A stretch of DNA of 64,000 bases from positions 498,001 through 562,000 of the forward strand of contig NC_092578.1 in assembly GCF_037975245.1 (NCBI RefSeq). The letters are read 5' to 3'. This stretch comes from Apostichopus japonicus (lineage: Eukaryota > Echinodermata > Holothuroidea > Aspidochirotida > Stichopodidae). Positions 851 to 53,283 of this stretch are shown here, piece by piece. The notes beneath the pieces are model-generated. The model had not been told where the DNA came from, made no database searches, and worked only from the letters and a program-made list of their open reading frames with translations. The position numbers and the translations under genes were made by a program. Positions within the stretch are counted from its first letter, which is position 1. Every line of letters begins with the position of its first letter.

Positions 851-892
851 CCTAAAAACGTTACGTAAGAAAAAACGAACGCATGGGCGAGA

Positions 893-1210: not shown

Positions 1211-1219
1211 ATATAAACC

Positions 1220-2407: not shown

Positions 2408-2612
2408 GTATGGCCTCCTATTACAATATTAAGTCTTTATATTACTCATACTTTCATATCTCTACACATATACCATACTCTAATGTACTAAGTAATCATG
2501 CTCACTCTGAGAGTAGGGAGGATACATAGGATGGTTATGAACTGACTGTGAGGGGGATAGAAAGGAATGGTGCTTGCATATTGCCAAACCAGGCAAGTTT
2601 AGCATCCCTTAT

Positions 2613-2669
2613 CCCTGAGGTGGGTGGACAACCTGAGATGGGTGGACACCCTGAGGTGGGTGGACACCA
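2613..2669. repeat. Short tandem repeat, 19 bp x3
   Basis: Three adjacent copies of CCTGAGGTGGGTGGACA with one G/A difference. Confidence 0.8.
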
Positions 2670-2986
2670 ACCTGAACACACAAGATAACTTGATAGAGAT
2701 GAATCTCTCTTGTCTTGGAAGGTACGTTATTGGCTGATGAGAATAAGTCATGCATGTATCGGTGTTTTTGACCAAGACTAGTCTTAGGGAATGATAGTAC
2801 AAATACCTTTCATTACTGTTATTTGGCAAGGATTAAGTAATTCTTTGCTGAGGGTTAGCATTTTAGTTAGCTAATGACAGGTCACATGGTATCGATGTGT
2901 TTTATAACATCAATCCCTATATCACAAAACTACTGCACTCATACATGCTTTGATCTAACATCTATAGCACTGCTATGCTCTATCTT

Positions 2987-3590
2987 GATGAGAGCCATCA
3001 GGTAATATTCTACCACTGTCCATCATGTGATGTATTCTGTTCTAACCCCCCCCATCCCCCTCCCCCTGATGAGAGCTATAAGGTAATATTCTAACACTGT
3101 CCATCATGTGATGTATTCTGTTCTATCTCCCCACCCCCCCCCCCGAGGAGAGCCATTAGGTAATATTCTAACACTGTCCATCATGTGATGTATTCTGTTC
3201 TATCTCCCCACCCCCCCTGATGAGAGCCATCAGGTAAGATTCTAACACTGTCCTTAATGTGATGTATTCTGTTCTAACCCACCCCCTCCCCCTGATGAGA
3301 GCCATCAGGTAATATCCTAACACTGTCCATCTTGTGATGTATTTTCTTCTAACCCCCCCCATCCCCCTTCCCCTGATAAGAGCCATCAGGTAATATTCTA
3401 ACACTGTCCATAATGTGATGTATTCTGTTCTCCACCCCCCCCCCCCCTGATGAGAGCCATCAGGTAATATTCTAAATATGTCCATAATGTGATGTATTCT
3501 GTTCTAACCCCCCACCCTGATGAGAGCCATCAGGTAATATTATAACAATGTCCTTAATGTGATGTATTCTGTTCTATCCCCTCCCCCCCT
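2987..3590. repeat. C-rich minisatellite, about 75 bp x8
   Basis: Eight units each hold GAGAGCCATCAGGTAATATTC, then CACTGTCC, TGTGATGTATTCTGTTCT and a variable poly-C tract. Most units contain a 6-bp stem CTGATG-N5-CATCAG, and a donor-like CAG|GTAATA follows it. The C-tract length varies between units, as expected from slippage. Confidence 0.9.
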
Positions 3591-4280
3591 TCTTTCCATC
3601 ATAGTATCTAGGAGTGTCTTTGTTTTTAACACAAAGGTTGGTATGTTTGTATACTTGGTACCTCAAAGTGCCTTAGTTATGTTTAGAGAGGTAAGTAGAG
3701 GTGTTGGTTAACATCCTAGCAGGTGTGTTGTGGGATATTTTTCCATACCCTATCATGTCCTATGTTCCATTGGTACAAGTACGTTATCATGCATTGGTTT
3801 TTTGTGTCATTTCCTCGACCATCAGATGCGCTCACCTGGATCAAGGTTAAGCTATCCTTCCTTCTCGGTAAGGTTGAAAAAAGACACCACAAACAAATGC
3901 AAAGTACTCATCAAAATGTTGGCAATGCTGCCAGTTCACCTCAAAATATATATCTTTTAATAATTTGCTAGTCTTTCATAGTGTATAAATGGATATTGGT
4001 TTTGGGTCTATTAATTTGGTTTACTCAGCTGTAGACAGGTGTGGTCATTATTATCATCACTCACTGTCGGGGCTGCTTCACCATAAAAAAAAGATATTTA
4101 TTTACAATATTAGCTTTTGGCTTAACTTGAACAGGACCAATTATGTTAGCTGTTCAAAGTTATTTTGTAAAACATGACATATAGAAGGCCCTTTCTGATT
4201 TCTTGCCAAAGGCAAAAGAAATTTATGCCATTTATACGGTGATGGGGTGTTGGTGTGTGAGGGAGTGCATGTGTATACAC

Positions 4281-4439
4281 ATAATGAATGGTTATGAGTG
4301 CAATAGTGCAAATATTTCATGAGTTGAAAGATGGAATGTTCCATTTAACGAGGCGCAGCCGAGTTGAATTGAACAAACTACATCTTTCAACGAATGAAAT
4401 ATTTGCACTATTGCACGAATGGAAACCATTCATTATTTG
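4281..4439. mobile_element. Foldback/MITE-like inverted repeat element
   Basis: The left arm 4281-4333 and right arm 4381-4439 are imperfect reverse complements over about 55 bp; both contain GTGCAATAGTGCAAATATTTC or its complement. The loop contains AACGAGGCGCAGCCGAGTTG. No target-site duplication was clear. No coding sequence lies inside. Confidence 0.6.
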
Positions 4440-6425
4440 TTTTATAGAACACCTTCAAATTTGAATATAATTGGATGTAAAATGCACTCATGCAACAGAT
4501 TGTTTTGAACAGACATGTTTCTCTGCTCTCTTACCATTGAAAAAAGTGCTATCAAAAAAGTATAACCCATGGTTCTATTTCATAGAGTGCAATAGAGCGG
4601 ATTTTGCATGCAATCGACGAGCAATTGACCAATCAAATGGCTGGAATATAATTAGGTGTTGTATAATACCTAATAGCTTTACTTGTAAACACAATACTTA
4701 AAATAGTACATGGTAGTTCAGCTTTATACCTGATATGGATCCACTTAACCAATAATAACGATATGCTGAACTTCATACTCACAATGTGGAATCGCCTTAC
4801 AGAGTTAAGGAATGTTATAGTTGAGAAGAGATAAAAAGGTCCTCTTTCAAGATCTGAAAGACCTAGGAACTACAAACTCCAAAAGTTAAAAGATAAATTT
4901 GAGATATGCAGATCCACCTCAGTTTTTACGAAAACCCTATAGTTTTCTATGGAATTCACAGGTCATTGAAGTCAATAGAGGTCAAAGTTTAACACCTTGT
5001 CAACTGTGAAAATCTATGCAGTATTTAAACATGATATCTCCTATGAAACATTCAAGTTAGTAAGTTTTGTGGTTGGAGTTTCTTACCACACACACCTTTT
5101 ACTTCCACTGTTATGAAGCTTATAATATTTATTGGGTCAGGGGAACCATGTGCAATCAATTGTGTAATAATGTAACCATGTAAAACATAATGTGTCAATC
5201 TCCTACAGGTTATATAATACTTCTAGCAACAGCCCACATGCGAGTGTAAAACGTGGGTAATATAGTTACTTTCTGCAAAGTTTGACCTCAAAAGAAGCAT
5301 TCTAAGTTTGTCACCCAGGATGACTGCCATTAATGATTGGCATTCTAATTTTCATTCTAAGCATGGTAATTAGCAATAGAGTCTTTCTGCAAACACTACC
5401 TTAAAGTGAACCACAGTGTACCAATAAGAACAAGCAAGCTTGCCTGATAAAAATGTAAATATGTATGAATGAAATATAGCTGTATACATTTCTTGTTGTA
5501 GTTTGTTGTTGCCTTCTCTTTCACCTACTTCCTGAAAATGGAACAAAGTTTTCACTTGCTATATCAGAAGTAGTTAGTTAGCTTTATTTAAATGACTTTA
5601 CAGTACACCATTGATTTTACTTGCACTGTTATTCTGCCCTACAAGGTCTTCTGACCCTTTGCACATTTTCATGCCTCATATTTAATCAAACAATAATTTG
5701 TCTGCTTCCTTTGTACATATATTTCGTACAAAAGTACTTATCTTTGAGCTAGAACAAAAGTCAACTGCTATGAGATTTACCTGTCATGTAAAATAATCAT
5801 GAATTACTTCATTGCACCTGACCAATGCAAAATGTAGCGCTGCACATATGCTAGAATATTAGTAGGTGTTTAAGGTCTGATAAATTACTGCAAGATTTAT
5901 AAGGAATGTTGTTTCCTTTCTATATGTGAACATTTACTAAGTGAACTGATCATACACTTAGGAGCATGACTTCAAACTTCCAATACAAAGAAAACCTGTG
6001 TGGCCATATCATGGTTGTTGCACAGTTTGCTGTATGGTTACCTACTCTTGTATGAGAGATGCTATTGTATGAAACGTAGAAGCGAGCTTTTCCATCAGAC
6101 ACCAATGTTCCCTTCATATGGACGCAAACAAGAACCTCACCAACGAATGTAAATGAATGTATGCATGCCTAGTGGCCCGTTTGAACTGGATAGCTTCTGC
6201 ACTAAATTAATTTGTGAGTATTACTCACAGGTGTCAGAAAGAGTTGAGAGTTTGTAAATATGCTGTGACCTTTCTACACCTCTAAGTATACAGTAGTGTG
6301 TGCAGATAGCCTGTTTCATCTGCGGATTTGCCCAAAATATTGTTGTGCTTCCTGTATAGCAAATAAATCTTTTTTAACTCAGGAAGATGAACTCTTGCTA
6401 TATTGCTAGCTAATCATACACATAC

Positions 6426-7135
6426 ATTTAGATGAAACCAAGTGTATAAACCTAACCATGTATATTATTAAAACAAGTATAGCATCAGACCAAGTGTATT
6501 ACCTATTAACAAAGTGTAACCTAACCATGTGTATTACCAACCAAAGACATGGCCAGATCAAGTGCATTATCAAACCAAGTGCATAATCCAATCAAGTGTA
6601 TTACCTAGCTAAGTGTATTATTGAAACAAGTATAGCATCAGACCAAGTGTATTACCTATTAACAAAGTGTAACCTAACCATGTGTATTACCAACCAAAGA
6701 CATGGCCAGATCAAGTGCATTATCAAACCAAGTGCAAAATCCAATCAAGTGTATTACCTAGCTAAGTGTATTATTGAAACAAGTATAGCATCAGATCAAG
6801 TGTATTACCTATTAACAAAGTGTAACCTAACCATGTGTATTACCAACCAAAGACATGGCCAGATCAAGTGCATTATCAAACCAAGTGCAAAATCCAATCA
6901 AGTGTATTACCTAGCTAAGTGTATTATTGAAACAAGTATAGCATCAGATCAAGTGTATTACCTATTAACAAAGTGTAACCTAACCATGTGTATTACCAAC
7001 CAAAGACATGGCCAGATCAAGTGCATTATCAAACCAAGTGCATGATCCAATCAAGTGCATTACCTAACCAAGTGTATTATTGAAACAAGTATAGCATCAG
7101 ACCAAGTGTATTACCTGTTAACAAAGTTTATAACC
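6426..7135. repeat. Minisatellite, 153 bp x about 4.6
   Basis: The word AGCATCAGA recurs at 6481, 6634, 6787, 6940 and 7093, exactly 153 bp apart. Within a unit there are about seven degenerate AAGTGTATTAC sub-repeats of roughly 20 bp. Because 153 is a multiple of three, a frame stays open from 6596 to 7045, giving a 51-residue periodic peptide. There is no sign that it is a gene. Confidence 0.9.
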
Positions 7136-8644
7136 ATTAATGCCCTATCGCAGTAAATGGTTACCTTTCTACTCATGAACCAAGAATAATTCCAAGTATT
7201 TTTACTTTGTTATATAATAAATATAAATTGATATTATATAGTACCTGAATGTATCATAAATCAAGCTCTTCAATCCATAGTATTCATTGGTTAATGGTTT
7301 TAATCAACTGGGTAAAGGGAACTTCCTCCACTCCATGCCAAAATATGGCCTTTTTGCCTGATAATGCAAAAGAAATGCCTCCCAAATGAAGAGCCTTCCT
7401 GAGCGTGCACACTGTGCTGATCTGTAACCTCAGGGGATAATGTAGTAAATGATTCCTAGTTAACACGTTTACGTTTTCTGATATAATCGTTAATTATAGA
7501 CTATTAACATGTATGTATAATGCCAACAATAACACCCACTCAGTTCACAAAGTATGAAAGAAAACAAGCCAGAATACCTTTCTTAAGAAAATGAAAGTAG
7601 ATTCATAACACAAAGCTATAGGGTTGAATGTGGTTGAATGTAGTTGATGCTGTTACTTTCATAGTTTTACTGGTTATTCTTCTGCTAGTTAAACGATTTG
7701 GCTGATTGAAGCTCAAAGGTTGATTATAACTCTGATTCACAGGTAAAGAGAGAGATAGGGAGAGCACACTTTGGTTACAGTACTGAGAGTAGGTAGTGGA
7801 ATGCATGTAAGCCAGTAAAAAGAGATAGTTTAACTAAGAAGAAAAACAGGACCATCAGTCAACAACTAAAGGAAAAAATATATAAGGATTATTAAAAACG
7901 ATAGAAGTATTAGATTAGGTATTAAGTAAATAATTGTTCCAGGTGTGTAGCTGGAGCATGAGTTAATAACAAGGAAGTAAGACGAAGCTGCACCTATCAA
8001 GGTTTCATGTGCTACTAACATTTGCTTCAACTCTCGACTCTGGAGGTTCTTTTCATAATTCAGGGACAAAGCAGCTTCATTATTTGTGAAGGATCGTAGC
8101 AAACTTGTTAGTAAGCTGAGACGACTAGTGGAGTTGGAGGGTTTGAATTGGTAAAGTATGACTGTTGTTGCTTGGCATTGCTTTGCTATAAGAGTATGTT
8201 TTGTAACATTAGAATTGATATGTGAGTACAAGGATCTAAGTGAGAGGACTAATAATTCATCTTCCACTAGTATCTCGAATAGATTTCAAAACATCCTCAA
8301 GTTGAAGTTCAAATCCACAAGAGTGCGTACAAGTATTAAAAGGCAGTGATGCTAAAATATATGGGATCAAGTCTGGGTAAGGTACCTCAGGGATTATATT
8401 AGTTCCTTCTTAATCTACTAATCACTGCATCAATAAAACTTTTTACTAAGCAGTTGTTTAGGATGGCTGTGGTAATTTGAAGTAATTAATTGCTGTACAT
8501 TAGTTAAACTATGTTTCATTATCAGTGTTAAACTATGTTTCATTATCATTAACTATGTTTCATTATCAGTAATGAAGTTTCAGTTCAATCCAATTGCGTC
8601 TCTTATATTTATAAAAATGTATATAAAATGTATATTTTTAATAG

Positions 8645-8689
8645 AGTTTGGGAGATGCAGAAACAGTTTTTCATAATCAAATGGAAACT
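8645..8689 (+). CDS. ARHGAP micro-exon (45 nt, probable)
   Basis: Acceptor TTTTTAATAG and donor ACT|GTAAGT bound a 45-nt segment encoding SLGDAETVFHNQMET in phase 0-0. This matches the phases of the exons before (2407) and after (13729). It adds 15 residues to the linker after the WW domain. The fit of both splice sites and phase is the only evidence, so it may be an alternative cassette or a chance match. Confidence 0.5.
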
Positions 8690-9512
8690 GTAAGTAGTGA
8701 ATTATAACTCATTAAGTTATTAATACTCATTGACATGATGCCTTAATTATTAATAATAGTGAGCAGGTGTGTCAAAATTGCTATCTAAAATAGTCAACCA
8801 AGTGCAAACAACTGGTCATGAATGTTTTGATATAATGTATTGTGTGTATTGTAATGGCTGAATAGTGCAATATGTGTTGTATGTTTTACTATGCATTCTT
8901 TGGGTAGCAATGTACTATAGCAATATAGCATAGTACATGTAATAGCAGCAATGGCTTACATTACTGACATAGTACCTACTGTTTATACTGCTTTTAATTG
9001 CACATGTTATCTTAAATCATGATGCAGTTTGTAGGATTACATCGAGGGGGAGGGGTGGGGGAATAGAAGGGAATCCTTCCAGATATATCTATGTCACTCT
9101 TGGGAAGGTTATTTTATTGGATTTAGTCCAAGGTTGGTGTAGACACTTCATCTTGTGTGTGTACAGTAAGTCCATATGACAGATTCTGTGTATTGATAGG
9201 CCTAGCTGGAAGGAGGAGCCCCTCAAACAGACCTACTAATACTAGTACTTGCTGATTAAGATATAAATACATCAAAGGTTATGTTTATTAGGTTCTGGAA
9301 CATTCAGTATGTTAAATTACCATTGGCAAGCAGAAACCTCTACCCCTTCAATGTTTTTTTTTATCTTTTCATGTTCATTAAATATCATCAAATTCAAACT
9401 CGGTAGTCTATGGTCACACTTTACCTGTAATATATATCACAATATTGAAAAATTAGAAAAAGAATAAATAGTTTAGTCTTTTGTACTTTGCATGGTTGTC
9501 TTTGCATGCAAT

Positions 9513-10056
9513 CACCTTGCATGAAGACAGACACTATTCCATAGCAACTGCTGTAATCCAGCATAGGACTTGCATGAAGACAGACACTATTCCATAGCAA
9601 CTAATCGAGCATAGGACTTGCATGCAGACTGACACTATTCCATAGCAACACATCCAGCATAGGACTTGCATACAGACAGACACTATTCCATAGCAACACA
9701 TCCAGCATAGGACTTGCATAAAGACAGACACTATTCCATAGCAACACATCCAGCATAGGACTTGCATAAAGACAGACACTATTCCATAGCAACTGCTGTA
9801 ATCCAGCATAGGACTTGCATGAAGACAGACACTATTCCATAGCAACTAATCCAGCATAGGACTTGCATGAAGACCGACACTATTCCATAGCAACTAATCG
9901 AGCGTAGGACTTGCATGAAGACAGACACTATTCCATAGCAACTAATCCTGCATAGGACTTGCAAAAAGACAGACACTATTCCATAGCAACTTATCCAGCA
10001 TAGAACTTGCATGAAGACAGACACTATTCCATAGCAACTAATTGAGCGTAGGACAT
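9513..10056. repeat. Minisatellite, 48/53 bp x11
   Basis: Eleven copies of GACACTATTCCATAGCAAC occur at 48-bp spacing, or 53 bp when the unit carries an extra GCTGT between CAACT and AATCC. Variants include ATCGAG/ATCCAG and GCATAG/GCGTAG. Repeating minus-strand open frames across it are artefacts of the periodicity. Confidence 0.95.
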
Positions 10057-11575
10057 GAGTAAGATATCCGCAGTGCAAAATACTGAAATAGTCCTGTCTG
10101 GTGTCCCTGCGGCATTTCTAAGTATTTTCAGACCTCGCCAGAGAGTGTGTTTTCATTTGCAGGCAGTCAAGTTAGGGGGAAATTGTGTTTGTATAGGAAA
10201 ATGAAGGAATTAACCGTGAATGGACTGGGAATGTAGCTTAACGCTCCAGAGTTTGAAATGGATGGTAGGTGAACAGAATTAATATTTGAGAAAAAGGTGA
10301 GATGAAGCCATATGCAAGATAATTAATTTCATCATCATTATAGTACTCTATGAGAAGAGGATGCCAAGCTGAAGATTAAGTCTGCTTGGCAATTGGGTGA
10401 TTGAAGCATAGTTGATAAAATGTTTTGTTTGATTCTGAAGGAAACAATAATATTTAGGGTAAAGAACAATGCTTTGGTGGTGTAAGTTTTCATATCCCTC
10501 TGAATTCTTTACAGTAAAATGCAGAAAACCTGTCAGATCTTACTAATCTTAAACAGTAATAATGTATTGATTGATCATTTATTCATTCAGAGGACATTAT
10601 ACTTCAATAACATATCAGTTGTAAGTGATGTTTCTAGTAACACACAAGACACAGTGCAAAGAGAAGAATAGAGTTGCTCACACTGTATGTGATTAATCAC
10701 CCATTTCATTCCTAACAATAATTTGTAATGATTGTTGTATTCATTACAAGGTTGATGAAGGGTGCTGGGGGGTTTTGGAAAGAGTGGGAGGGGAATGGCA
10801 GGCAGATGGGTATGGGGGTGGTGAAGGGAGAAAGGATGATGAAGGAGTATGAAGTGATGTAAATTGTATTTGAAGTATAGACATGTCAGAATATGTCACT
10901 GCATTTTAAGCTCACACGGTTCGTTTCAAAATCTGCATAACTTTTTATGATAGTAAACCTAAAAACATGCAGACAAGTATATATGTGAGTTGCCTATTGA
11001 TACATTAAAGTGCATTTCCCTCTCTAGGATCTTAACGACAAACAGACACACCAAGTGAATAATTTAATCTGTTGTAGATAGAGAGATGATGTCGTTGATG
11101 AGTAAGACCGATAGATGCTAGAGGAGATTGCTTCCTGGTTTACTACAGCCATTATGATACTCCTTATGTATCTGTATATGTATGTACAGTATTAAGTACC
11201 ACACAGGGAAGTCTCATAGGCCTAGGGAAGTATCACCTCATAACATCTGTAATGATAACAAATTATTGCTAAAGGCTGCAATTCAAAAGATGCAAAGGCT
11301 GTACTGATATAATGTATACCTATATTGTGTATGAACATTGTATTCAAAGTCTAAAGTTGTTGATACGTATTTCCAATAGAAATATGTGTGGAAGAAGGCA
11401 GATTGGGAGAGGGGGTTTGGGATGGGGATTGCTTTTTAATACTTAAAAAGCAGGTGACTAGTTTGGTAATGGTGTTAAACTAACGATAAACAGATAAATT
11501 TTGTATCATTTAACATTAATTACATAATCTCTGAATTCCATATCATTTGCTATACCAATGTATAAAGATTCATCT

Positions 11576-11804
11576 CTGACATAGCGTACCCCAGACTGAC
11601 ATAGCGTACCCCAGACTGACATAGCGTACCCCAGACTGACATAGCGTACCCCAGACTGACATAGCGTACCCCAGACTGACATAGCGTACCCCAGACTGAC
11701 ATAGCGTACCCCAGACTGACATAGCGTACCCCAGACTGACATAGCGTACCCCAGACTGACATAGTGTACCCCAGACTGACATAGCGTACCCCAGACTGAC
11801 ATAG
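11576..11804. repeat. Near-perfect 20-bp minisatellite x11
   Basis: Eleven head-to-tail copies of CTGACATAGCGTACCCCAGA, plus a partial twelfth. Only one base differs (C to T at 11765). The near identity points to recent expansion or active homogenisation. Confidence 0.97.
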
Positions 11805-13728
11805 TTTTAGGTCATTAACTGTACTTTATACTAGTGTCAGTTATCATAGCTGTTGTGAGCTCTCCTTGCATAAGATGCATGTCACATACAGAGTCAGGAT
11901 AAACAGGAAAAGGGCACTAATTATGAACTAATTAGTAAATTGGTGGCTGTATATATGTAAACACAGCTATAGATATTTGTCCTGACTACCATATATGGTA
12001 AACAGCATATCATGATAATGTCTGTGTTAAAATATGACACACCTCCTCATTTCAAAACTTAGCCCACTTAGCAAACAAGGAAGTGTTCAGCTTTGAAAAG
12101 GGCTGCTTGTTTAAACACATACAGAAACACAAACAGGAAAACATAATTCTAATGTATTTAGATTTTTGAAATGTTGCCAATTTTATAGGACAGTGTGACT
12201 CCCTAAAATATCACATTCAAGTGTGGGCGGTATAAACAAAATTTAAAATTGCAGCCACAAGAAATTGGAAGAGATGGATATTAAAAACCAGAGTTTGTGC
12301 CGTATGTACTGAATACATTAATATCTTGTTACAACCTTTACAAGTATACCCCATCAGCAGAGAATAATCAAGGTACAAGCAATAACACTTGAAGTGTTAA
12401 TTATTGATAGAACTGAAAATTTCTAGTTGACATTTATGAAATTATGACAAAACTCTTCATGTGATGTGTTAACTTGGATATGATGTAAATCTGACAGTTT
12501 TGTGCAACAAAGAAGGTCGTGTAACGGAATTGCTGATATTTCTGTAAGCGGTAGTCATGGAGATCATATACCAGCATTCTTAGTGTTGCTATTGATTGGT
12601 AATGGTGTATAAACGTATTCATTACTAACACTATCCATCACATGGGATATAACCAACAACCATACCACATACTATGAATGGAAATTGTTTTGCAGTATTA
12701 AACATTTATTGTAGTTAAATACCCTGTATGTAATATGAGAATGCAAACTTCAGAAAATCTATTTACAAATATTTGCCATAACATGATGCAATGGATGGTG
12801 ATTTCATTCAATTTGAATGTCAGCCAACATGAGTAGGGTAGGTTAGTATTCATTACAACACTATAATGGCCCCTATGATACTGGATACTAGACTAGTATA
12901 CTGGATAGTGTTGTATACTAGATACTGGACAAGTATATAGTACTGTTGTCTTCTTTCTTGTCTCTACAACTTCATTTTTTATTGGACTGATGTTGATAAC
13001 TTTGAAGAATCATATTGATCTTGCCTTACATTGATCATCAAAAAGGAGGAGGGGGGGGGTGTGGGGAGTTTAAGGAATATAGGCTCTTGTGTCAGAACAC
13101 TGGCAAATGCTTTTGTGAAAGCTGACCATGTTTTGGATATGTTGATATTATTAGAAGCAGAGATTTAGTTTCTCTTCTTCTCACTGAATCCATTCTCTGC
13201 CAGTATCGTCCGTCTGTCTGAACACTCATCCGTGTGGAGGGAGCTGTATATAATGATGAGACTACCATATGGCTGGCAGATCCATCTTATTAATGAAAAT
13301 AGGCTGTATTCTTTCAATTGAAAACAGCTAAATGAAATTGATACACCTGCTTTGAAGATTATATTCAGAAATTCAACTATCACCATTGCTTGGTTTACTC
13401 ATCCATAGTAAAATTGATTGCATGTAAAACATTGAGCAGATGAAGTAGATTTGGTGTAGTACTTACCATATATGAAACTACTGTGGTATCAAAGTTACTT
13501 AACAGACGTTTGAGACTTCATAAAGCCAAAGGGAAGCTTTATTTTGTATTATTATTAATGTGTGTTAGTATTGTTTGAGTTTAAGCTCTTACCAGGCTTA
13601 CGGACAAGGAATCAAACATATTGAGTATTTTTTTCCTCTTCATATTGAGTTGTGTAGACTTGTATCTTTGAAATATCAAGTTGTGTAGTAAGTTATTCAG
13701 TTTGTGTTTTATTGACTTTTATTTTCAG

Positions 13729-13902
13729 GATCTCCCTCTCGGTCCAGGTCCGAACCGTAACGATTCAGGAAATATTCTGCATATGAAACCAAGGAGCCGA
13801 GGAATTGATTCAAACCGACCTTCATCTATGTACTCTGACCGTAGAGCCTCTAAACAAAAAGCATTTCAACGAGCATTTCCGGAGCAAAGCAATCTAGTCA
13901 TG
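13729..13902 (+). CDS. ARHGAP exon: linker
   Basis: Acceptor TTTTATTTTCAG and donor ATG|GTAACA. Phase 0-0, 58 codons. The peptide DLPLGPGPNRNDSGNILHMK is followed by a basic stretch (PRSRGIDSNRPSSMYSDRR) and ends FQRAFPEQSNLVM. There is no recognised domain. It lies between the WW and PH domains and has the Ser/Arg/Pro-rich character expected for a disordered, phosphorylatable linker. Confidence 0.75.
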
Positions 13903-14629
13903 GTAACAAACTCTATAATTTATCAGTAGTCAGTAGAAAGGATAAATAATTGATTTAGGAACTAACTTTGACTGTTCTGCTTCTTCATCTGTAGTATCTA
14001 GTAACTATCTAGTTATTGAGCCAAAGTTATAAAGTTTGATTCTTCCACTAGGAGGTAGAGTTGTGATATATACCTGTATCCTTGCATGCAGATAGGCTTG
14101 GCTTAGGTGCACCCACTGCCACAAAGTCTTATCAGACTAGGCTTAGCTGGTACAACTGTCCAATCATCTCTTAAATGTACTTCAGTCCAAACTGTGTGCT
14201 GTAGTTGCATTGCTTTGATGATGTCATTTTACAAGTGTGTTTTAGTTGTATTGGCTTAAGCTTTATATTTATTTGTAGTTGGATAGCAGTTATTATTATA
14301 TCTCTTATTCCATGTCTCCATTGGTCTCTTCTTGCTCGTCTCTGTGCACATTCCTATGCCTCCCACCTACCTTGGACTTCTCTGATCTTCACTTTTAGCA
14401 TTAATGGGTGTTGCTTTCATCCCTGTATGTATTTACCTCTGTAGTGTGTAGTGCTTTCTAAGTTATGTTCATATTTTCGTGTTTATCATGCCAAAAAGAA
14501 AATTACTTCATATTGATGAGTTCTTTAACCATCTTTGCTATTTATTATGTGCCATTGACAAACGTACATTGCAGTAGCATAGTATTAATAAAGTTGTTCA
14601 TTTTTAAGGCTTGTTTGATTGTACTGGTC

Positions 14630-15130
14630 ATTTGACTATGTTGAATGTAGTGGTCATGTGATCATATTGAATGCATTGGTCATGTGAACATGTTGAGTAT
14701 ATTGTTGATGTTGATGTGAGTATTGAGCATAGTCGTCATGTGATAGAGTTGGATATAATGGTCATGTGGCCATTTTGAATATAGTGGTCACATGACAGTG
14801 TTGAGTGTAATGGTCATGTGACCACATTGAGTGCATTGGTCATTTGACCATGTTGAGTGCATTGGTCATTTGACCATGTTGAGTGTATTGGTCATGTGAC
14901 CATGTTGAGTGCATTGGTCATGTGACCATGTTGAGTATAGTGTTGATGTGAGTATTGAGCATAGTGGTCATGTGATAGTGTTGGTTGTAATGGTCATGTG
15001 AACATTTTTGGTACTGTATAGTGGTCAAGCGACAGTGTTGAGTGTAGTGGTCACAGTGTTGTGTGTGGTAGTCATGTGACTATGTTAAGTTCAGGAATCA
15101 TGTGTTGTGTTGATTGTACTGAGGATATAG
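14630..15130. repeat. Degenerate 25-30 bp tandem repeat
   Basis: About 16 diverged copies of GGTCATGTGACCATGTTGAGTG occur. The best match each other at 14810-14935 and decay towards both ends. Each unit contains the palindromic core GGTCATGTGACC. Confidence 0.8.
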
Positions 15131-25544: not shown

Positions 25545-27740
25545 ACATACATACTATATAGTGCTCTGTATGGTATGTTCTATATAGTTTACATTTTGCT
25601 CTGTATGGTATGTACTATATAGTTTACAACGTGCTCTGTATGGTATGTACTATATAGTTTACATAGTGCTCTGTATGGTATGTACTATATAGTTTACATA
25701 GTGCTCTGTATGGTATGTACTATATAGTTTACAACGTGCTCTGTATGGTATGTACTATATAGTTTACAACATGCTCTCTATGGTATGTACTATATAGTTT
25801 ACATAGTGCTCTGTATGGTATGTACTATATAGTTTACATTTTGCTCTGTATGGTATGTACTATATAGTTTACATAGTGCTCTGTATGGTATGTACTATAT
25901 AGTATACATAGTGTTCTGTATGGTATGTACTATATAGTTTACATAGTGCTCTGTATGGTATGTACTATATAGTTTACAACGTGCTCTGTATGGTATGTAC
26001 TATATAGTTTACAACGTGCTCTATATGGTATGTACTATATAGTTTACATAGTGCTCTCTATGGTATGTACTATATAGTTTACAACGTGCTCTGTATGGTA
26101 TGTACTATATAGTTTACAACGTGCTCTGTATGGTATGTACTATATAGTTTACATTTTGCTCTGTATGGTATGTACTATATAGTTTACAATGTGCTCTGTA
26201 TGGTATGTACTATATAGTTTACAACGTGCTCTGTATGGTATGTACTATATAGTTTACATTTTGCTCTGTATGGTATGTACTATATAGTTTACATAGTGCT
26301 CTGTATGGTATGTACTATATAGTTTACATTTTGCTCTGTATGGTATGTACTATATAGTTTACATTTTGCTCTGTATGGTATGTACTATATAGTTTACATA
26401 GTGCTCTGTATGGTATGTACTATATAGTATACATAGTGTTCTGTATGGTATGTACTATATAGTTTACATAGTGCTCTGTATGGTATGTACTATATAGTTT
26501 ACAACGTGCTCTGTATGGTATGTACTATATAGTTTACAACGTGCTCTATATGGTATGTACTATATAGTTTACATAGTGCTCTCTATGGTATGTACTATAT
26601 AGTTTACAACGTGCTCTGTATGGTATGTACTATATAGTTTACAACGTGCTCTGTATGGTATGTACTATATAGTTTACATTTTGCTCTGTATGGTATGTAC
26701 TATATAGTTTACAATGTGCTCTGTATGGTATGTACTATATAGTTTACAACGTGCTCTGTATGGTATGTACTATATAGTTTACATTTTGCTCTGTATGGTA
26801 TGTACTATATAGTTTACATAGTGCTCTGTATGGTATGTACTATATAGTTTACAACGTGCTCTGTATGGTATGTACTATATAGTTTACAACGTGCTCTGTA
26901 TGGTATGTACTATATAGTTTACAATGTGCTCTCTATAGTATGTACTATATAGTTTACAATGTGCTCTCTATGGTATGTACTATATAGTTTACAATGTGCT
27001 CTCTATGGTATGTACTATATAGTATACATAGTGTTCTGTATGGTATGTACTATATAGTTTACATAGTGCTCTGTATGGTATGTACTATATAGTTTACATA
27101 GTGCTCTCTATGGTATGTACTATATAGTTTACATAGTGCTCTGTATGGTATGTACTATATAGTTTACAATGTGCTCTCTATGGTATGTACTATATAGTAT
27201 ACATAGTGTTCTGTATGGTATGTACTATATAGTTTACATAGTGCTCTGTATGGTATGTACTATATAGTTTACATAGTGCTCTGTATGGTATGTACTATAT
27301 AGTTTACATAGTGCTCTCTATGGTATGTACTATATAGTTTACATAGTGCTCTCTATGGTATGTACTATATAGTTTACAATGTGCTCTCTATGGTATGTAC
27401 TATATAGTATACATAGTGTTCTGTATGGTATGTACTATATAGTTTACATAGTGCTCTGTATGGTATGTACTATATAGTTTACATAGTGCTCTCTATGGTA
27501 TGTACTATATAGTTTACATAGTGCTCTGTATGGTATGTACTATATAGTTTACATAGTGCTCTCTATGGTATGTACTATATAGTTTACATAGTGCTCTGTA
27601 TGGTATGTACTATATAGTTTACATAGTGCTCTGTATGGTATATACTATATAGTTTACAACATGCTATGTACAATATGGTATGTACTATTTAGTTAACATA
27701 GTGTTCTGTATGGTATGTACTACAGTATATAGTTTACATA
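25545..27740. repeat. Minisatellite, 35 bp x about 62, with higher-order repeats
   Basis: The unit is TGTACTATATAGTTTACA plus a variable NNGTGCTCTGTATGGTA. Variants at two or three positions (TTTT/TAGT/AACG/AATG and CTGTA/CTCTA/CTATA) label individual copies. The rare variant AGTATACATAGTGTT recurs at 25901, 26426, 27021, 27196 and 27406, spaced 525, 595, 175 and 210 bp, all multiples of 35. About 14 consecutive copies from about 25838 repeat in the same order 525 bp later. Confidence 0.97.
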
Positions 27741-31044: not shown

Positions 31045-31224
31045 AGGAAAATGTGTTTGGAAAAAGATTAGTGGAGCTATGTCATAAAGAAAAAAGCACA
31101 GTACCAAGTTTTATTCTTAGCTGTATCGAAGCAATTGATAACCGAGGATTAGAAGTTGATGGCATTTATCGTGTCAGCGGTAACCTGTCAATGATTCAGA
31201 AGTTACGGTTGGAGGTGGACCAGG
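31045..31224 (+). CDS. ARHGAP exon: RhoGAP domain with Arg finger
   Basis: Acceptor TTGTTCTCCTCAG and donor CAGG|GTAAGT. Phase 1-1, 180 nt. EENVFGKRLVELCHKEKSTV leads to PSFILSCIEAIDNRGLEVDG and IYRVSGNLSMIQKLRLEVDQ. The Arg of GIYRVSGN is the catalytic Arg finger that completes the GTPase active site. The last 25 nt and the donor are the first unit of a 60-bp tandem array. Continuing past the donor meets an in-frame TAG 15 nt further on, so use of a later donor copy would truncate the protein after LEVDQGKWTK. Confidence 0.93.
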
Positions 31225-32073
31225 GTAAGTGGACTAAATAGAGGTTGCAGTAATATGCTAAGTTACGGTTGGAGGTGGACCAGGGTAAGTGGATTACATA
31301 GAGGTTGCAGTAATATGTTAAGTTACGGTTGGAGGTGGACCAGGGTAAGTGGACTACATAGAGGTTGCAGTAATATGCTAAGTTACGGTTGGAGGTGGAC
31401 CAGGGTAAGTGGACTGCATAGAGGTTGCAGTAATATGCTAAGTTACGGTTGGAGGTGGACCAGGGTAAGTGGACTAAATAGAGGTTGCAGTAATATGCTA
31501 AGTTACGGTTGGAGGTGGACCAGGGTAAGTGGACTACATAGAGGTTGCAGTAATATGCTAAGTTACGGTTGGAGGTGGACCAGGGTAAGTGGACTACATA
31601 GAGGTTGCAGTAATATGCTAAGTTACGGTTGGAGGTGGACCAGGGTAAGTGGACTGCATAGAGGTTGCAGTAATATGCTAAGTTACGGTTGGAGGTGGAC
31701 CAGGGTAAGTGGACTAAATAGAGGTTGCAGTAATATGCTAAGTTACGGTTGGAGGTGGACCAGGGTAAGTGGACTACATAGAGGTTGCAGTAATATGCTA
31801 AGTTACGGTTGGAGGTGGACCAGGGTAAGTGGACTACATAGAGGTTGCAGTAATATGCTAAGTTACGGTTGGAGGTGGACCAGGGTAAGTGGACTAAATA
31901 GAGGTTGCAGTAATATGCTAAGTTACGGTTGGAGGTGGACCAGGGTAAGTGGACTACATAGAGGTTGCAGTAATATGCTAAGTTACGGTTGGAGGTGGAC
32001 CAGGGTAAGTGGACTACATAGAGGTTGCAGTAATATGCTAAGTTACGGTTGGAGGTGGACCAGGGTAAGTGGA
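31201..32073. repeat. 60-bp minisatellite x15 that duplicates an exon end and its 5' splice site
   Basis: Units start every 60 bp from 31201 to 32041. Each contains the last 24 nt of the exon (AGTTACGGTTGGAGGTGGAC, CAGG) and an intact CAGG|GTAAGTGGA donor. Then comes a variable triplet before TAGAGGTTGCAGTAATATGC. The triplets run AAA, ACA, ACA, GCA, AAA, ACA, ACA, GCA, AAA, ACA, ACA, AAA, ACA, ACA, so 240-bp and then 180-bp higher-order units are visible. In the exon's frame every full unit meets the same TAG. A 293-codon open frame here is in another frame and is not a gene. Confidence 0.97.
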
Positions 32074-32850: not shown

Positions 32851-32985
32851 AGAAACCAGTCAACCTGAACAATTCACCTTGGAGTGACATTCATGTCATC
32901 GCTGGTTCCCTCAAACTCTTTTTCCGGGAGTTGCCGGAACCTTTATTCACCTATGATGCCTATGATAGGTTCATCCAGTGTTCCA
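32851..32985 (+). CDS. ARHGAP exon: RhoGAP domain, central part
   Basis: Acceptor CAATCTTGCTTACAG and donor TCCA|GTAAGT. Phase 1-1, 135 nt. [20 protein letters not shown] is followed by [20 protein letters not shown] and FIQCS. [12 protein letters not shown] is the most conserved RhoGAP segment and carries the Lys/Arg that contact the GTPase. The last 41 nt of the exon, with its donor, are repeated downstream in a 65-bp array. Confidence 0.93.
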
Positions 32986-33430
32986 GTAAGTCCAATAACT
33001 ACCTATAACATTCACCTTTGATGCCTATGATAGGTTCATCCAATGTTCCAGTAAGTCCAATAAGTACCTATAACATTCACCTATGATGCCTATGATAGGT
33101 CCAACCAATGTTCCAGTAAGTCCAATAACTACCTATAACATTCACCTTTGATGCCTATGATAAGTTCATCCAATGTTCCATTAAGTCCAATAACTACCTA
33201 TAACATTCACCTTTGATGCCTATGATAGGTTCATCCAATGTTCCAGTAAGTCTAATAACTACCTATAACATTCACCTATGATGCCTATGATAGGTTCATC
33301 CAATGTTCCAGTAAGTCCAATAACTACCTATAACATTCACCTATGATGCCTATGATAGGTTCATCCAATGTTCCAGTAAGTCCAATAACTACCTATTACA
33401 TTCACCTATTTTGTCTATGATAGGTTCAAC
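32945..33430. repeat. 65-bp minisatellite x7 that duplicates an exon end and its 5' splice site
   Basis: The segment ATTCACCTATGATGCCTATG, ATAGGTTCATCCARTGTTCC, A|GTAAGTCC recurs with TTCCA at 32981, 33046, 33111, 33176, 33241, 33306 and 33371, exactly 65 bp apart. The fourth copy has GT changed to TT. The exonic copy has CAG where all others have CAA, a synonymous difference. Translation through the first donor hits TAA within nine codons. A decayed eighth copy ends at about 33430. Confidence 0.96.
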
Positions 33431-34156: not shown

Positions 34157-34262
34157 CAAACAATGACACCAAATCTAGGATCAAGAGATTACGAGAGCTG
34201 TTACATGGGCTGCCCAAAGAACACAAGGACACAATCTACACACTCTTCGCTCACTTTCAAAG
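34157..34262 (+). CDS. ARHGAP exon: RhoGAP domain, helix region
   Basis: Acceptor TACCCAATAG and donor AAAG|GTAACC. It starts in phase 1 and ends in phase 2 (106 nt). The peptide is NNDTKSRIKRLRELLHGLPK followed by EHKDTIYTLFAHFQR. The LPxEHxxTxxxLxxHxxR pattern is the conserved helix of RhoGAP domains. Confidence 0.92.
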
Positions 34263-34714: not shown

Positions 34715-34886
34715 AGTCATAGAACAAGGAGAAAAGAATAGAATGAAAGCCCAGAACATTGCCATTGTGTTTGGCCCAACACTCATGTGGTCCAAGAATG
34801 AGTCTTTCAACCTAGCTACCAATTTAGTTCTTCAAAATCGCCTAATAGAGCTTATCTTAACGGACCATGAACAGATATTTCGATGA
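34715..34886 (+). CDS. ARHGAP last coding exon: end of RhoGAP, stop
   Basis: Acceptor TTTTCTTTACAG, phase 2, and TGA stop at 34884-34886. VIEQGEKNRMKAQNIAIVFG is followed by PTLMWSKNESFNLATNLVLQ and NRLIELILTDHEQIFR. The N-x-AIVFGPTL motif with the conserved Asn, and the final LIELIL helix, close the RhoGAP domain right at the C-terminus, as in ARHGAP12/15/27. Confidence 0.93.
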
Positions 34887-48283: not shown

Positions 48284-48749
48284 GGTAGCATACGCCCATT
48301 ACAAGCCCCATTGACTTACACACTAAATCACAAAAGTAATGTGGTCTCTAAGTCTAGATAGAAGTTTTCACTAGCTTAACGCTACCCATCACCGGATAGC
48401 TGACAAGTTGGCCTTTCATGGCACCATCAATTTTCCGTACCATGACCGTGAAAATTTTTTGCTATCCGAGCCGGAAGTTTTCGTCACTTGTAAACAAACC
48501 TCTTCACTCAGTGGTAAACAAATTTCCTACGCTGCTCCTGGGAAGCCTAAAGGGGTCTAAAATTGCCTCAATTGACCCAATTTTTTCACCACATGTACTT
48601 CCATTCATGCTCTTCAACATGAAAGCCACAAAAACTAGATTGTGATTGATAACAGGTCACAAAAGATGTTCTCCTGTTGCTTTTTGGCACTTTTCCTGAA
48701 GGAGAACAATCGAGCGGATTGATATAGACTCTAATAGGAGTATGCCACC
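48284..48749. mobile_element. Element E, copy 1 (466 bp)
   Basis: The left end GGTAGCATACGCCCATTA and the reverse of the right end GGTGGCATACTCCTATTA match at 15 of 18 positions. It is flanked by GTCA on the left and TTAA on the right. It has a 75-codon open frame (48418-48645) without a recognisable motif. It is probably non-coding, a MITE moved in trans. Confidence 0.75.
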
Positions 48750-50550
48750 TTAAGTGAGAGTCGAATTTTTTTTTTTTTTCCAAAATGATACTTTTCATAG
48801 TCGTCACAATATAAACCACAACAGAATTATATGCAATTATCATTTTAGGTCCATAAAGATGTATTTTCAGAGATTTCAGTATGCACGGTGCAGTGTGTAA
48901 ATACACATATGAGCAATACTGTGTAAGCAGTAACCAGGTCTATGTCTGCAACAACACTTCCAGCCACCAATTTTGATAAGCTTGACCAATTTGGGTGCAT
49001 CTATGATTCTTGCAGGTATTATTGGTATCCCTGATCACAATCCACTTGGTCTGGCTTGCCCTACCTGCAGAAACATGATCCATAGAAGGGTCAGCGGTGA
49101 GGGCTTTTTCGTCTCTGGCTCTGAAAAGTGATGAAAACTACTTTTGTTTAGCTCAGCAGATTCCTCACAAACTGACCCACAGGACATACCCCAATGTATT
49201 CCTGAACTGTTTGGAACATGTTAAACTGATATTGCATGTCACTCCAGTGCAACTGTTAAGTTACTAAGAATAAAAGAGGAGAATTGAAGGTGTTCTTTGC
49301 CAAAACTGGATCATCGGGATTTGTAAACAACAGCCTCACTGTAACAGTATTACAGCAGTCAAAAGGAAAGCTTACTGGAATGCTATCTAGATACACTGTT
49401 CACCTCAATAGCATATCCAGTCCATTTAAAGGTTTGTGCATAGGTTGTTACAATGTATTAAAGACAGTTATAAGAGAAGAGAGGTGGAAAGGGGGGCATA
49501 TTTCATGATAAAACATTCAAATTTGTTGCTCGGCAGAGAACAACAACGTCAAATTACCTTATTCTCCATTGGTGGCAAGCACTGGTTCCTATAGTTACTA
49601 CAGTAGATCTCCCATGGAAGCATCAGGATATCTCTTTCTGCTGTCAGAGTTGTTTGGTATTTGTTGTTACCTCATCTAACCAGTTGAGTCCATTGATACC
49701 ACACCCATTCAATGTATATCGCTGTGCATGCTGAGGACTTAGCACGTCAACTTTCTCTGAAATTGACAAAACAACAGAAAACTAATGAGGAGTGAATAGG
49801 CTCAAAAACCCCTTGATGCACATTGGCAGAAGCAGAAAATGCATACCTTTGTGGATTATTTGCTAAATAAGACTCAAAACATTCTCTGTGCAAGGTATTA
49901 GCCCTCAGCAGCCACTCCACTTAGGATACAGACCTCATACAACATTGTGCTACAGCTGGTGTAGACTTGGTCTAGGATACTAACGTAGCGCCATTATGAA
50001 CCTGAGGCCTAGGCCTAAGCTAACAACATTAGGGGTATTTCATGCATTGAAACTGAGTTTTTGTCCTTAGTTAAACACCAGGTACTTCCAGCTTTAGCAA
50101 AAATAACCTTAAGTATGATTACCATGTAATTTAGGTGCCCACAGATGTCAAATTTCACTGAACTTAGTCGTTCACGTCACACACACTGCAGGCTTTTTGG
50201 TCTGATTCTGAAGGATTTTGAATTTCGTGCATTTGGCACCTACTTAGCAGATTCAAGGCAGGAATCACACTACGGAAGCTTTGGTAGGTCAAGGCTTAAT
50301 GACCCAATAGTTTATTGGGGAGGAAAACTGGTTAGAAATGCTCAGAAGGCTGTTCTAGTCTAATGTATGGACACGCACATGCTCTTTGTGGCACTTTAAG
50401 GCTGTAATACTAATTTATGCGTAAAAATCACCCAAGCGTGAAATTTTCTGACGTTTGCTTGAAAACCATTTTTACACACCATAGCAACTACTTTGATCCA
50501 AAATTGGGACTTCTAGCACTTAAAATGAAAAATTTGGCATTTTTGCTTAA
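48750..50550. other. Spacer I, copy 1 (1801 bp, TTAA to TTAA)
   Basis: It begins TTAAGTGAGAGTCG followed by a T-run and ends TTTTTGCTTAA. No transposase was recognised. A coding-like island on the minus strand (49671-49756) is listed separately. Short open frames (49284-49508, 50145-50363) are intact but unrecognised and identical in the second copy. Confidence 0.6.
49671..49756 (-). pseudogene. Exon-like island inside spacer I
   Basis: On the minus strand an acceptor CAATTTCAG and donor GAG|GTAACA bound 86 nt. They encode KVDVLSPQHAQRYTLNGCGI followed by NGLNWLDE in phase 2. The peptide has normal amino-acid composition, unlike surrounding frames, so it may be a host exon captured by the element or part of the element's own spliced gene. 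The identical copy is at 51938-52023. The protein was not recognised. Confidence 0.3.
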
Positions 50551-51016
50551 GGTAGCATACGCCCATTACAAGCCCCATTGACTTACACACTAAATCACAA
50601 AAGTAATGTGGTCTCTAAGTCTAGATAGAAGTTTTCACTAGCTTAACGCTACCCATCACCGGATAGCTGACAAGTTGGCCTTTCATGGCACCATCAATTT
50701 TCCGTACCATGACCGTGAAAATTTTTTGCTATCCGAGCCGGAAGTTTTCGTCACTTGTAAACAAACCTCTTCACTCAGTGGTAAACAAATTTCCTACGCT
50801 GCTCCTGGGAAGCCTAAAGGGGTCTAAAATTGCCTCAATTGACCCAATTTTTTCACCACATGTACTTCCATTCATGCTCTTCAACATGAAAGCCACAAAA
50901 ACTAGATTGTGATTGATAACAGGTCACAAAAGATGTTCTCCTGTTGCTTTTTGGCACTTTTCCTGAAGGAGAACAATCGAGCGGATTGATATAGACTCTA
51001 ATAGGAGTATGCCACC
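50551..51016. mobile_element. Element E, copy 2
   Basis: Appears identical to copy 1 and is flanked on both sides by TTAA (50547-50550 and 51017-51020). Confidence 0.75.
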
Positions 51017-52817
51017 TTAAGTGAGAGTCGAATTTTTTTTTTTTTTCCAAAATGATACTTTTCATAGTCGTCACAATATAAACCACAACAGAATTATATG
51101 CAATTATCATTTTAGGTCCATAAAGATGTATTTTCAGAGATTTCAGTATGCACGGTGCAGTGTGTAAATACACATATGAGCAATACTGTGTAAGCAGTAA
51201 CCAGGTCTATGTCTGCAACAACACTTCCAGCCACCAATTTTGATAAGCTTGACCAATTTGGGTGCATCTATGATTCTTGCAGGTATTATTGGTATCCCTG
51301 ATCACAATCCACTTGGTCTGGCTTGCCCTACCTGCAGAAACATGATCCATAGAAGGGTCAGCGGTGAGGGCTTTTTCGTCTCTGGCTCTGAAAAGTGATG
51401 AAAACTACTTTTGTTTAGCTCAGCAGATTCCTCACAAACTGACCCACAGGACATACCCCAATGTATTCCTGAACTGTTTGGAACATGTTAAACTGATATT
51501 GCATGTCACTCCAGTGCAACTGTTAAGTTACTAAGAATAAAAGAGGAGAATTGAAGGTGTTCTTTGCCAAAACTGGATCATCGGGATTTGTAAACAACAG
51601 CCTCACTGTAACAGTATTACAGCAGTCAAAAGGAAAGCTTACTGGAATGCTATCTAGATACACTGTTCACCTCAATAGCATATCCAGTCCATTTAAAGGT
51701 TTGTGCATAGGTTGTTACAATGTATTAAAGACAGTTATAAGAGAAGAGAGGTGGAAAGGGGGGCATATTTCATGATAAAACATTCAAATTTGTTGCTCGG
51801 CAGAGAACAACAACGTCAAATTACCTTATTCTCCATTGGTGGCAAGCACTGGTTCCTATAGTTACTACAGTAGATCTCCCATGGAAGCATCAGGATATCT
51901 CTTTCTGCTGTCAGAGTTGTTTGGTATTTGTTGTTACCTCATCTAACCAGTTGAGTCCATTGATACCACACCCATTCAATGTATATCGCTGTGCATGCTG
52001 AGGACTTAGCACGTCAACTTTCTCTGAAATTGACAAAACAACAGAAAACTAATGAGGAGTGAATAGGCTCAAAAACCCCTTGATGCACATTGGCAGAAGC
52101 AGAAAATGCATACCTTTGTGGATTATTTGCTAAATAAGACTCAAAACATTCTCTGTGCAAGGTATTAGCCCTCAGCAGCCACTCCACTTAGGATACAGAC
52201 CTCATACAACATTGTGCTACAGCTGGTGTAGACTTGGTCTAGGATACTAACGTAGCGCCATTATGAACCTGAGGCCTAGGCCTAAGCTAACAACATTAGG
52301 GGTATTTCATGCATTGAAACTGAGTTTTTGTCCTTAGTTAAACACCAGGTACTTCCAGCTTTAGCAAAAATAACCTTAAGTATGATTACCATGTAATTTA
52401 GGTGCCCACAGATGTCAAATTTCACTGAACTTAGTCGTTCACGTCACACACACTGCAGGCTTTTTGGTCTGATTCTGAAGGATTTTGAATTTCGTGCATT
52501 TGGCACCTACTTAGCAGATTCAAGGCAGGAATCACACTACGGAAGCTTTGGTAGGTCAAGGCTTAATGACCCAATAGTTTATTGGGGAGGAAAACTGGTT
52601 AGAAATGCTCAGAAGGCTGTTCTAGTCTAATGTATGGACACGCACATGCTCTTTGTGGCACTTTAAGGCTGTAATACTAATTTATGCGTAAAAATCACCC
52701 AAGCGTGAAATTTTCTGACGTTTGCTTGAAAACCATTTTTACACACCATAGCAACTACTTTGATCCAAAATTGGGACTTCTAGCACTTAAAATGAAAAAT
52801 TTGGCATTTTTGCTTAA
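51017..52817. other. Spacer I, copy 2
   Basis: An exact repeat of 48750-50550, including the exon-like island (51938-52023, minus) and the short open frames at 51551-51775 and 52412-52630. No new feature. Confidence 0.7.
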
Positions 52818-53283
52818 GGTAGCATACGCCCATTACAAGCCCCATTGACTTACACACTAAATCACAAAAGTAATGTGGTCTCTAAGTCTAGATAGAAGTT
52901 TTCACTAGCTTAACGCTACCCATCACCGGATAGCTGACAAGTTGGCCTTTCATGGCACCATCAATTTTCCGTACCATGACCGTGAAAATTTTTTGCTATC
53001 CGAGCCGGAAGTTTTCGTCACTTGTAAACAAACCTCTTCACTCAGTGGTAAACAAATTTCCTACGCTGCTCCTGGGAAGCCTAAAGGGGTCTAAAATTGC
53101 CTCAATTGACCCAATTTTTTCACCACATGTACTTCCATTCATGCTCTTCAACATGAAAGCCACAAAAACTAGATTGTGATTGATAACAGGTCACAAAAGA
53201 TGTTCTCCTGTTGCTTTTTGGCACTTTTCCTGAAGGAGAACAATCGAGCGGATTGATATAGACTCTAATAGGAGTATGCCACC
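52818..53283. mobile_element. Element E, copy 3
   Basis: Third copy. The left flank is TTAA (52814-52817) and the right flank GTCA (53284-53287). The right end GTATGCCACC is complete. Confidence 0.75.

What the first reader, a model, noticed from the sequence alone, without database searches (positions are those of the whole stretch)
31201..32073. Minisatellite of 15 units, each carrying the last 24 nt of a RhoGAP exon and a perfect 5' splice site
The array begins inside the exon, so the coding end and its CAGG|GTAAGT donor are repeated 14 more times at 60-bp spacing without a single broken donor. Only the first donor gives a full protein; every later one would add a segment with an in-frame TAG. 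The gene therefore faces 15 equal donors of which one is productive. It could be a splice-decoy or NMD switch whose strength scales with copy number, or a harmless expansion that relies on U1 choosing the exon-proximal site. Each unit also has GGTTGCAG upstream of the copied exon end, so 34-nt micro-exons are conceivable.
Basis: partly seen in the sequence, partly recalled or inferred. Interest (0 to 1): 0.8.

Follow-up and report, generated by a model that had tools for sequence, protein, structure and literature searches.

The report
Splice-donor minisatellite at a RhoGAP exon
The end of one gene segment and its splicing signal are stuttered fifteen times into the following intron, which looks like one case of a recurrent, mostly tolerated stutter of the kind already described in amphioxus, and a natural test of how cells pick the right splice signal among identical copies.

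Summary
The structure is real: 14.6 units of 60 bp (31200-32073) with 15 identical AGG|GTAAGT donors. The first is the true end of an ARHGAP12/15-type RhoGAP exon; using a later one adds an in-frame TAG. Corrections: the copied exon end is 25 nt, the donor is strong but not the perfect consensus, and the micro-exon acceptor is poor.

It is not unique. The next exon of the same gene has the same thing (32945-33428; 7 copies, 1 broken). Of 171 sampled exons of RhoGAP, kinase and myosin genes, 10 have their 3' end, and 1 its 5' start, inside such an array. A KRI1 exon carries 27 perfect CAG|GTAAGT donors in a row.

This matches "mirages": minisatellite-like duplications of exon-intron boundaries described in amphioxus genes, reported not to disturb splicing and to vary in length. 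I read it as a tolerated mirage with the first donor in use (inferred; no RNA available). A decoy/NMD switch is not supported: decoy donors show neither clear conservation nor decay, and tandem donor words are only 0.9-2.7 fold as common as control words. What this work adds is a sampled frequency and a donor-over-acceptor bias (10:1, small numbers).

The parts
31045..31224 (+). RhoGAP exon A of an ARHGAP12/15-type gene; its last 25 nt are the first copy in the array
   Evidence: the acceptor could be read 2 nt further on (31047)
31200..32073 (+). 60-bp minisatellite, 14.6 units (25 nt exon end + 35 nt intron); unit variants partly arranged as repeating blocks of 3-4 units
31225..31230 (+). 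true 5' splice site AGG|GTAAGT (first of 15 identical donors; the others follow every 60 bp up to 32065)
31243..31250 (+). GGTTGCAG, first of 14 copies; possible but poor acceptor for 34-nt micro-exons
32851..32985 (+). RhoGAP exon B (next coding exon; joins exon A in frame through donor 1)
32945..33428 (+). second donor-spanning array, 65 bp x 7.4, starting 41 nt before the end of exon B; donor CCA|GTAAGT at 32986, 33051, 33116, 33246, 33311, 33376; the copy at 33181 reads TTAAGT
34157..34262 (+). RhoGAP exon C (CAAAG|GTAACC donor; no array at its end in the TRF list)
34715..34886 (+). last RhoGAP exon with stop TGA
2986..3590 (+). candidate third donor-spanning array (CAG|GTAATA, about 74 bp, 8 units); the exon itself is not confirmed
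   Evidence: no Pfam match for the guessed exon peptide

Best explanation
This is a 'mirage'-type minisatellite. A short stretch spanning the exon end and the start of the intron was duplicated in tandem and then expanded by ordinary repeat turnover. The exon is intact because the donor lies in the first unit, so copies 2-15 are intronic. I infer that the spliceosome nearly always uses the first donor, which has the exon directly upstream and is transcribed first, and that the other 14 donors are tolerated passengers spliced out with the intron. Shown: the structure, the intact reading frame through donor 1, recurrence at exon ends of other genes. Suggested by small numbers: a donor-side excess over the acceptor side. 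Inferred: which donor is used, and the duplication and turnover steps.
For: Donor 1 gives the RhoGAP domain in frame. The window is 14% minisatellite by the thresholds used, with 14 merged arrays in 64 kb. The same arrangement occurs at the next exon of the gene and at 8 further exon ends of other genes in the 171-exon sample. Outside that sample it occurs at a KRI1 exon with 27 consecutive perfect donors (25 overlapping triples; Kri1_C E 5e-28) and at the ends of two open frames read as exons, L031 and L034. Genes with donor-spanning arrays include matches to CDK11B, cGMP-dependent kinase 1 and KRI1, in which wholesale mis-splicing should be costly (general knowledge). Amphioxus mirages have the same anatomy, units of 10-160 bp, length differences between haplotypes and, by the authors' RT-PCR, undisturbed splicing (PMC3087553 and PMC3902484, passages seen). 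Donor words occur in tandem triples at rates near those of the same words read backwards: 6 against 7 arrays for CAGGTAAGT; 25 against 20 matches for CAGGGTAAGT; 365 triples per 27,121 single words against 452 per 40,132 for AGGTAAGT; 648 per 16,981 against 274 per 19,034 for AGGTGAGT.
Against: No RNA evidence. Work recalled from memory (not read) reports that when identical 5' splice sites compete, the intron-proximal one is often favoured, which would predict use of the last donor and a truncated protein; in PMC5585400 (passages seen) SRSF1 pushes choice towards the intron-proximal site. Near neutrality does not obviously explain the 10:1 donor to acceptor ratio, the denser array starts in exon ends or the 2.7-fold figure for AGGTGAGT.
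Confidence: 0.8

Rival explanations
1. Copy-number-tuned decoy or NMD switch: U1 sits on donors 2-15, a fraction of transcripts takes in TAG-bearing segments and is degraded, and array length sets gene output.
For: Every later donor is identical to the true one and using donor 2 or 3 brings an in-frame TAG. GT is kept in 81 of 83 downstream copies over 13 arrays. A naive count shows fewer mismatches in donor columns (14/747) than in exon (86/996) or intron (68/1162) columns, Fisher p 9e-9.
Against: The naive count is inflated by indels and by variants that spread within arrays. Counting change events with a rotation test gives 10 against 17.9 expected, p = 0.051 (10 usable arrays). In-frame stops are expected in any intron. 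The same anatomy in unrelated genes argues against a regulator of this one gene.
Confidence: 0.07
2. 5' splice sites actively seed or favour arrays (for example through co-transcriptional structures, or because donor-side arrays survive selection better than acceptor-side ones), so that exon ends are hot spots.
For: Donor-spanning 10 against acceptor-spanning 1 of 171 sampled exons (binomial p 0.012; 9:1 p 0.021 with the paralogous pair as one; 7:1 p 0.07 when the finding's own two exons are also left out). Array starts 0.53 per kb in the last 100 nt of exons against 0.06-0.12 per kb in bins downstream.
Against: Array coverage at the exon end (7 of 113) is not above that 100 nt into the intron (11 of 113). 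Array ends in the upstream flank run at 0.12-0.30 per kb, a higher background than the downstream bins. Short fragments cannot reveal arrays that start inside the intron, which biases. Genome-wide words show only 0.9-2.7 fold over control words, from matches that are not independent. Small numbers.
Confidence: 0.3
3. Chained micro-exons or alternative coding: units are spliced in as 34-nt exons or add protein segments.
For: An AG (GGTTGCAG, 14 copies) and a GT flank the copied exon end in the downstream units.
Against: Purine-rich stretch before the AG (29% pyrimidine against 65-82% at four true acceptors). Units added by donor choice carry TAG in the frame of the gene, and 34 nt shifts the frame.
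Confidence: 0.03
4. Assembly artefact (copy number wrong or invented).
For: Tandem repeats are often misassembled (general knowledge); PMC3087553 (passage seen) says one mirage was aberrantly assembled in a genome draft.
Against: Units differ in an ordered way over 15 copies. The phenomenon recurs on several contigs with different units.
Confidence: 0.05

Closest known systems
Amphioxus 'mirages' (Adh3, troponin C, globins BflGb6/BflGb9; similar repeats in PGBD5)
   Same: Minisatellite-like tandem copies spanning an exon-intron boundary with its splice signal; units 10-160 bp; 5' or 3' boundary; normal splicing reported (PMC3087553 and PMC3902484, passages seen)
   Different: More copies than the 3 and 6 given there for BflGb6 (15 here, 27 in KRI1); two consecutive exons of one gene are hit; a 171-exon sample gives a rate and a donor bias that I did not see in those passages. 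Whether this genome is a cephalochordate is not established
[quoted passage not shown] 1995, Nucleic Acids Res 23:1854)
   Same: [quoted passage not shown] the paper itself is not held)
   Different: Recalled: short 12-bp unit at an exon end, with several donors actually used; here no use is shown and the unit is 60 bp
Intron gain by tandem duplication of AG/GT proto-splice sites
   Same: Tandem duplication of a stretch that carries splice signals (PMC2891723 and PMC3087553, passages seen)
   Different: There the duplication makes a new intron inside an exon; here it spans an existing exon-intron border and lengthens an existing intron

Membership tests
Mirage minisatellites (as described for amphioxus) | Tandem array spans an exon-intron boundary, with true exon and intron in the terminal unit | tested here: met
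Mirage minisatellites (as described for amphioxus) | Unit length of about 10-160 bp | tested here: met
   60 and 65 bp here; 28 to 163 bp in the other loci
Mirage minisatellites (as described for amphioxus) | Both 5' and 3' boundaries can be duplicated in the genome | tested here: met
   10 donor-side and 1 acceptor-side (L186, 3 copies x 124 bp) of 171 sampled exons
Mirage minisatellites (as described for amphioxus) | Regular splicing not disturbed | not testable with these tools
   no RNA data; of donors 1-3, only donor 1 keeps the frame open
Mirage minisatellites (as described for amphioxus) | Length polymorphism, somatic instability | not testable with these tools
   one assembly only
Mirage minisatellites (as described for amphioxus) | Occurs in a cephalochordate | tested here: inconclusive
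   G000 is unnamed: 671.6 Mb in 35 contigs, 23 of them 18-46 Mb and together 671.1 Mb; Branchiostoma is recalled to have 19-20 chromosomes, so probably another animal
Functional alternative-donor minisatellite (IFI6 type) | More than one repeated donor used in mRNA | not testable with these tools
   no RNA data; donors 2 and 3 bring an in-frame TAG

The most novel reading that the evidence does not exclude
Exon-end arrays are a genome-wide, donor-biased class outside amphioxus, kept because the correct donor is the first one made and is fixed before the copies appear, while acceptor-side arrays are purged. The genome would then be a large natural experiment on first-come choice among identical 5' splice sites, against the intron-proximal preference recalled from in vitro work.
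Probability: 0.25. Interest if true: 0.65.

Novelty: new member of a known kind. Interest (0 to 1): 0.45.

Why it matters
How a cell picks one 5' splice site among identical neighbours is an old question, usually studied with engineered duplicates. Here nature offers sets of about 3 to 27 near-identical donors in ordinary genes, at perhaps several percent of exon ends. If RNA shows faithful use of the first donor, exon context or order of transcription outweighs site sequence. If not, array length becomes a natural dial of gene output. It also takes mirages from the few amphioxus genes named in the papers I saw to a sampled rate across gene families.

Tried and rejected
Donor words as array seeds, genome-wide. 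Exact tandem triples of CAGGTAAGT gave 6 arrays and the reversed control word gave 7, so no simple excess. Of the 6, L029 (KRI1), L031 and L034 begin at ends of open frames that I read as exons; L030, L032 and L033 could not be tied to an exon (no Pfam match for L032's open frame). L031 was read as VPS39 by eye; neither Pfam nor PDB sequences confirm it. L034 has no Pfam match. CAGGGTAAGT: 5 arrays, 25 matches against 20 for its control.

Conservation of decoy donors. The first count (p 9e-9) was rejected as inflated; the event-based rotation test gave p = 0.051. Both include the unconfirmed 2986 array and the three arrays from outside the sample. In L051 the last of 16 hits, at 444-bp spacing, is doubtful.

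Origin of the filler in the unit: its 20-nt stretch AGAGGTTGCAGTAATATGCT has no match in the window outside the array, with up to 3 mismatches.

The array at 58880-59681 is full of GTAAGT but lies inside an intron as I read it. Pfam on one reading frame of window 1-14999 found nothing.

Sample make-up. RhoGAP: 37 of 43 listed exons (the other 6 lie inside fetched loci and were not scored apart). Kinase: 132 listed; 30 fetched as loci, of which 22 were dropped from the count as intronless or nearly so (in these, flags one array near a match edge, L064, 129 bp past it, with a 233-bp unit); 68 more chosen mainly for short open frames. Myosin: 58 of 67; the 9 dropped have open frames of 352 aa or more. 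First and last exons were not weeded out, so not every one of the 171 has both a donor and an acceptor. Exon edges were judged from match edges, and donors scored with a weight matrix recalled from memory. Arrays close to an exon edge but not reaching into it were not counted: donor side L008, L013, L020; acceptor side L012, L109, L121, L169, L198. L121's array ends 7 nt before the match start.

Literature: nine answered searches listed no paper with mirages in title or the shown start of abstract; PMC3087553 was in the listings, its passages gave the term, and the tenth search used it.

Full report
What was checked. The array is as described. TRF reports 31200-32073, period 60, 14.6 copies, 98% matches. 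The 15 donors CAGGGTAAGT stand exactly 60 bp apart with no change. The columns that vary are few and lie in the intronic part of the unit. The variant types run in a partly repeating order (AAAT, TTACAT, CTACAT, CTGCAT, then blocks of 3-4 units; read), which suggests growth by duplicating several units at a time. The copied exon end is 25 nt. The donor is AGG|GTAAGT.

The gene. Four exons around the array join into one RhoGAP domain (E 1.2e-49), closest among solved structures to ARHGAP15 and ARHGAP12. Donor 1 leads in frame into exon B; donors 2 and 3 bring TAG at once. The micro-exon idea needs the AG of GGTTGCAG, which is preceded by 29% pyrimidine over 17 nt, against 65-82% at the four acceptors of these exons.

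Not a single case. The next exon of the same gene ends in a 65-bp array of 7 copies, the fourth with a broken donor. I then sampled exons through three protein families. RhoGAP: L006, L017 and L026 carry donor-spanning arrays among 28 loci; L017 and L026 are the window's own two. Protein kinases: L051 (31 bp, about 16 copies) among 8 loci kept; then, among 77 further exons of RhoGAP and kinase genes, L081 and L082 (70 bp, CDK11B-like; two paralogous places on one contig) and L117 (42 bp, cGMP-dependent-kinase-like). Myosin heads: L143, L188 and L196 among 58 exons; L188 was extended and shows 5 copies with all 5 donors intact. L196 is the least regular, with some copies reading GGATAAG. In all, 10 of 171 sampled exons on the donor side and 1 of 171 on the acceptor side (L186, 3 copies of 124 bp with its acceptor). 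TRF alone, with thresholds and without the extensions, finds 9 and 0.

Is the donor side special? The 10:1 split has p = 0.012. Taking the CDK11 pair as one gives 9:1, p = 0.021. Leaving out the two exons that prompted the study as well gives 7:1, p = 0.07. Array starts per kb are 0.53 in the last 100 nt of exons against 0.06-0.12 in the bins downstream, but array ends in the upstream flank run at 0.12-0.30 per kb, and short fragments hide arrays that start within the intron. By coverage the exon end does not stand out: 7 of 113 exons at the match end against 11 of 113 a hundred bases into the intron. With an expectation of 1.5 the chance of 7 or more independent cases is 0.0009, and with 3.0 it is 0.034; those two expectations are my own estimates, from array densities of about 0.15 and 0.3 per kb over 60 nt per exon (the window itself has 14 arrays in 64 kb, 0.22 per kb). 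Genome-wide, exact words tell a cooler story: tandem triples per single word are 1.35% for AGGTAAGT against 1.13% for the reversed word, 3.8% against 1.4% for AGGTGAGT, 25 against 20 matches for CAGGGTAAGT, and 6 against 7 arrays for CAGGTAAGT. Matches within an array are not independent, so these are rough. I conclude that exon ends are not avoided by arrays and may be modestly favoured.

Do the extra donors matter? In 13 arrays GT is intact in 81 of 83 downstream copies. Donor columns seem calmer than the rest of the unit, but when changes are counted as events and the donor window is rotated around the unit, 10 events are seen and 17.9 expected, p = 0.051 (10 arrays usable). So there is no firm sign that copies are kept for use, nor that they are being destroyed as harmful. 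The KRI1 exon (Kri1_C; Protein KRI1) faces 27 perfect CAG|GTAAGT donors (25 overlapping triples). KRI1 is known from general knowledge as a ribosome-assembly factor, so tolerance is the simplest reading.

Comparison with what is known. Amphioxus Adh3, troponin C and globin genes have 'mirages', and PGBD5 similar repeats: minisatellite-like duplications of intron/exon boundaries, on either side of the intron, with units of 10-160 bp, differing between haplotypes (BflGb6) and somatically unstable (Adh3), and reported not to interfere with regular splicing (PMC3087553, PMC3902484; passages seen). This array meets the structural criteria that could be tested. Which animal this is cannot be read from the tools: 671.6 Mb in 35 contigs, 23 of them of 18-46 Mb. 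From memory that does not fit Branchiostoma; a sea cucumber or an acorn worm would fit, unverified. A human precedent is the IFI6 minisatellite (title only).

Verdict. A genuine, striking structure, but one case of a recurrent and already named kind. The best account is a tolerated mirage whose first donor does the work. What would lift it is RNA: this genome seems to hold many sets of identical donors in series, which makes the old question of donor choice directly testable.

Noticed in passing
2986-3590: About 8 units of about 74 bp, most with GAGAGCCATCAG|GTAATATT or close to it; may be a third donor-spanning array in another gene, but the exon is not confirmed.
   Followed up: partly
58880-59681: 31-bp array with some twenty GTAAGT words (many as CCGGTAAGTGT) inside an intron, not at an exon end as read.
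   Followed up: partly
about 48300-53200: The same open frames recur at 48400, 50667 and 52934, a 2,267-bp spacing: a large tandem repeat of at least two to three units.
   Followed up: no
25558-27722: 35-bp array of about 62 copies with ATGGTATGTAC, upstream of exons that look PH-like by eye.
   Followed up: no
L186 with L200: Acceptor-side array: 3 copies of 124 bp with pyrimidine tract, AG and about 69 nt of exon start of a myosin gene.
   Followed up: yes
L081 and L082: Two paralogous CDK11-like exons on contig C11 both carry the 70-bp array with 63-64 nt of exon per unit, so the array predates or was carried by the duplication.
   Followed up: partly
G000 contig C1, 2433338-2434863 and 2475062-2477975: Two arrays of AGGTAAGT mostly at about 76-78 bp spacing, 40 kb apart, outside the spacing searched for.
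   Followed up: no
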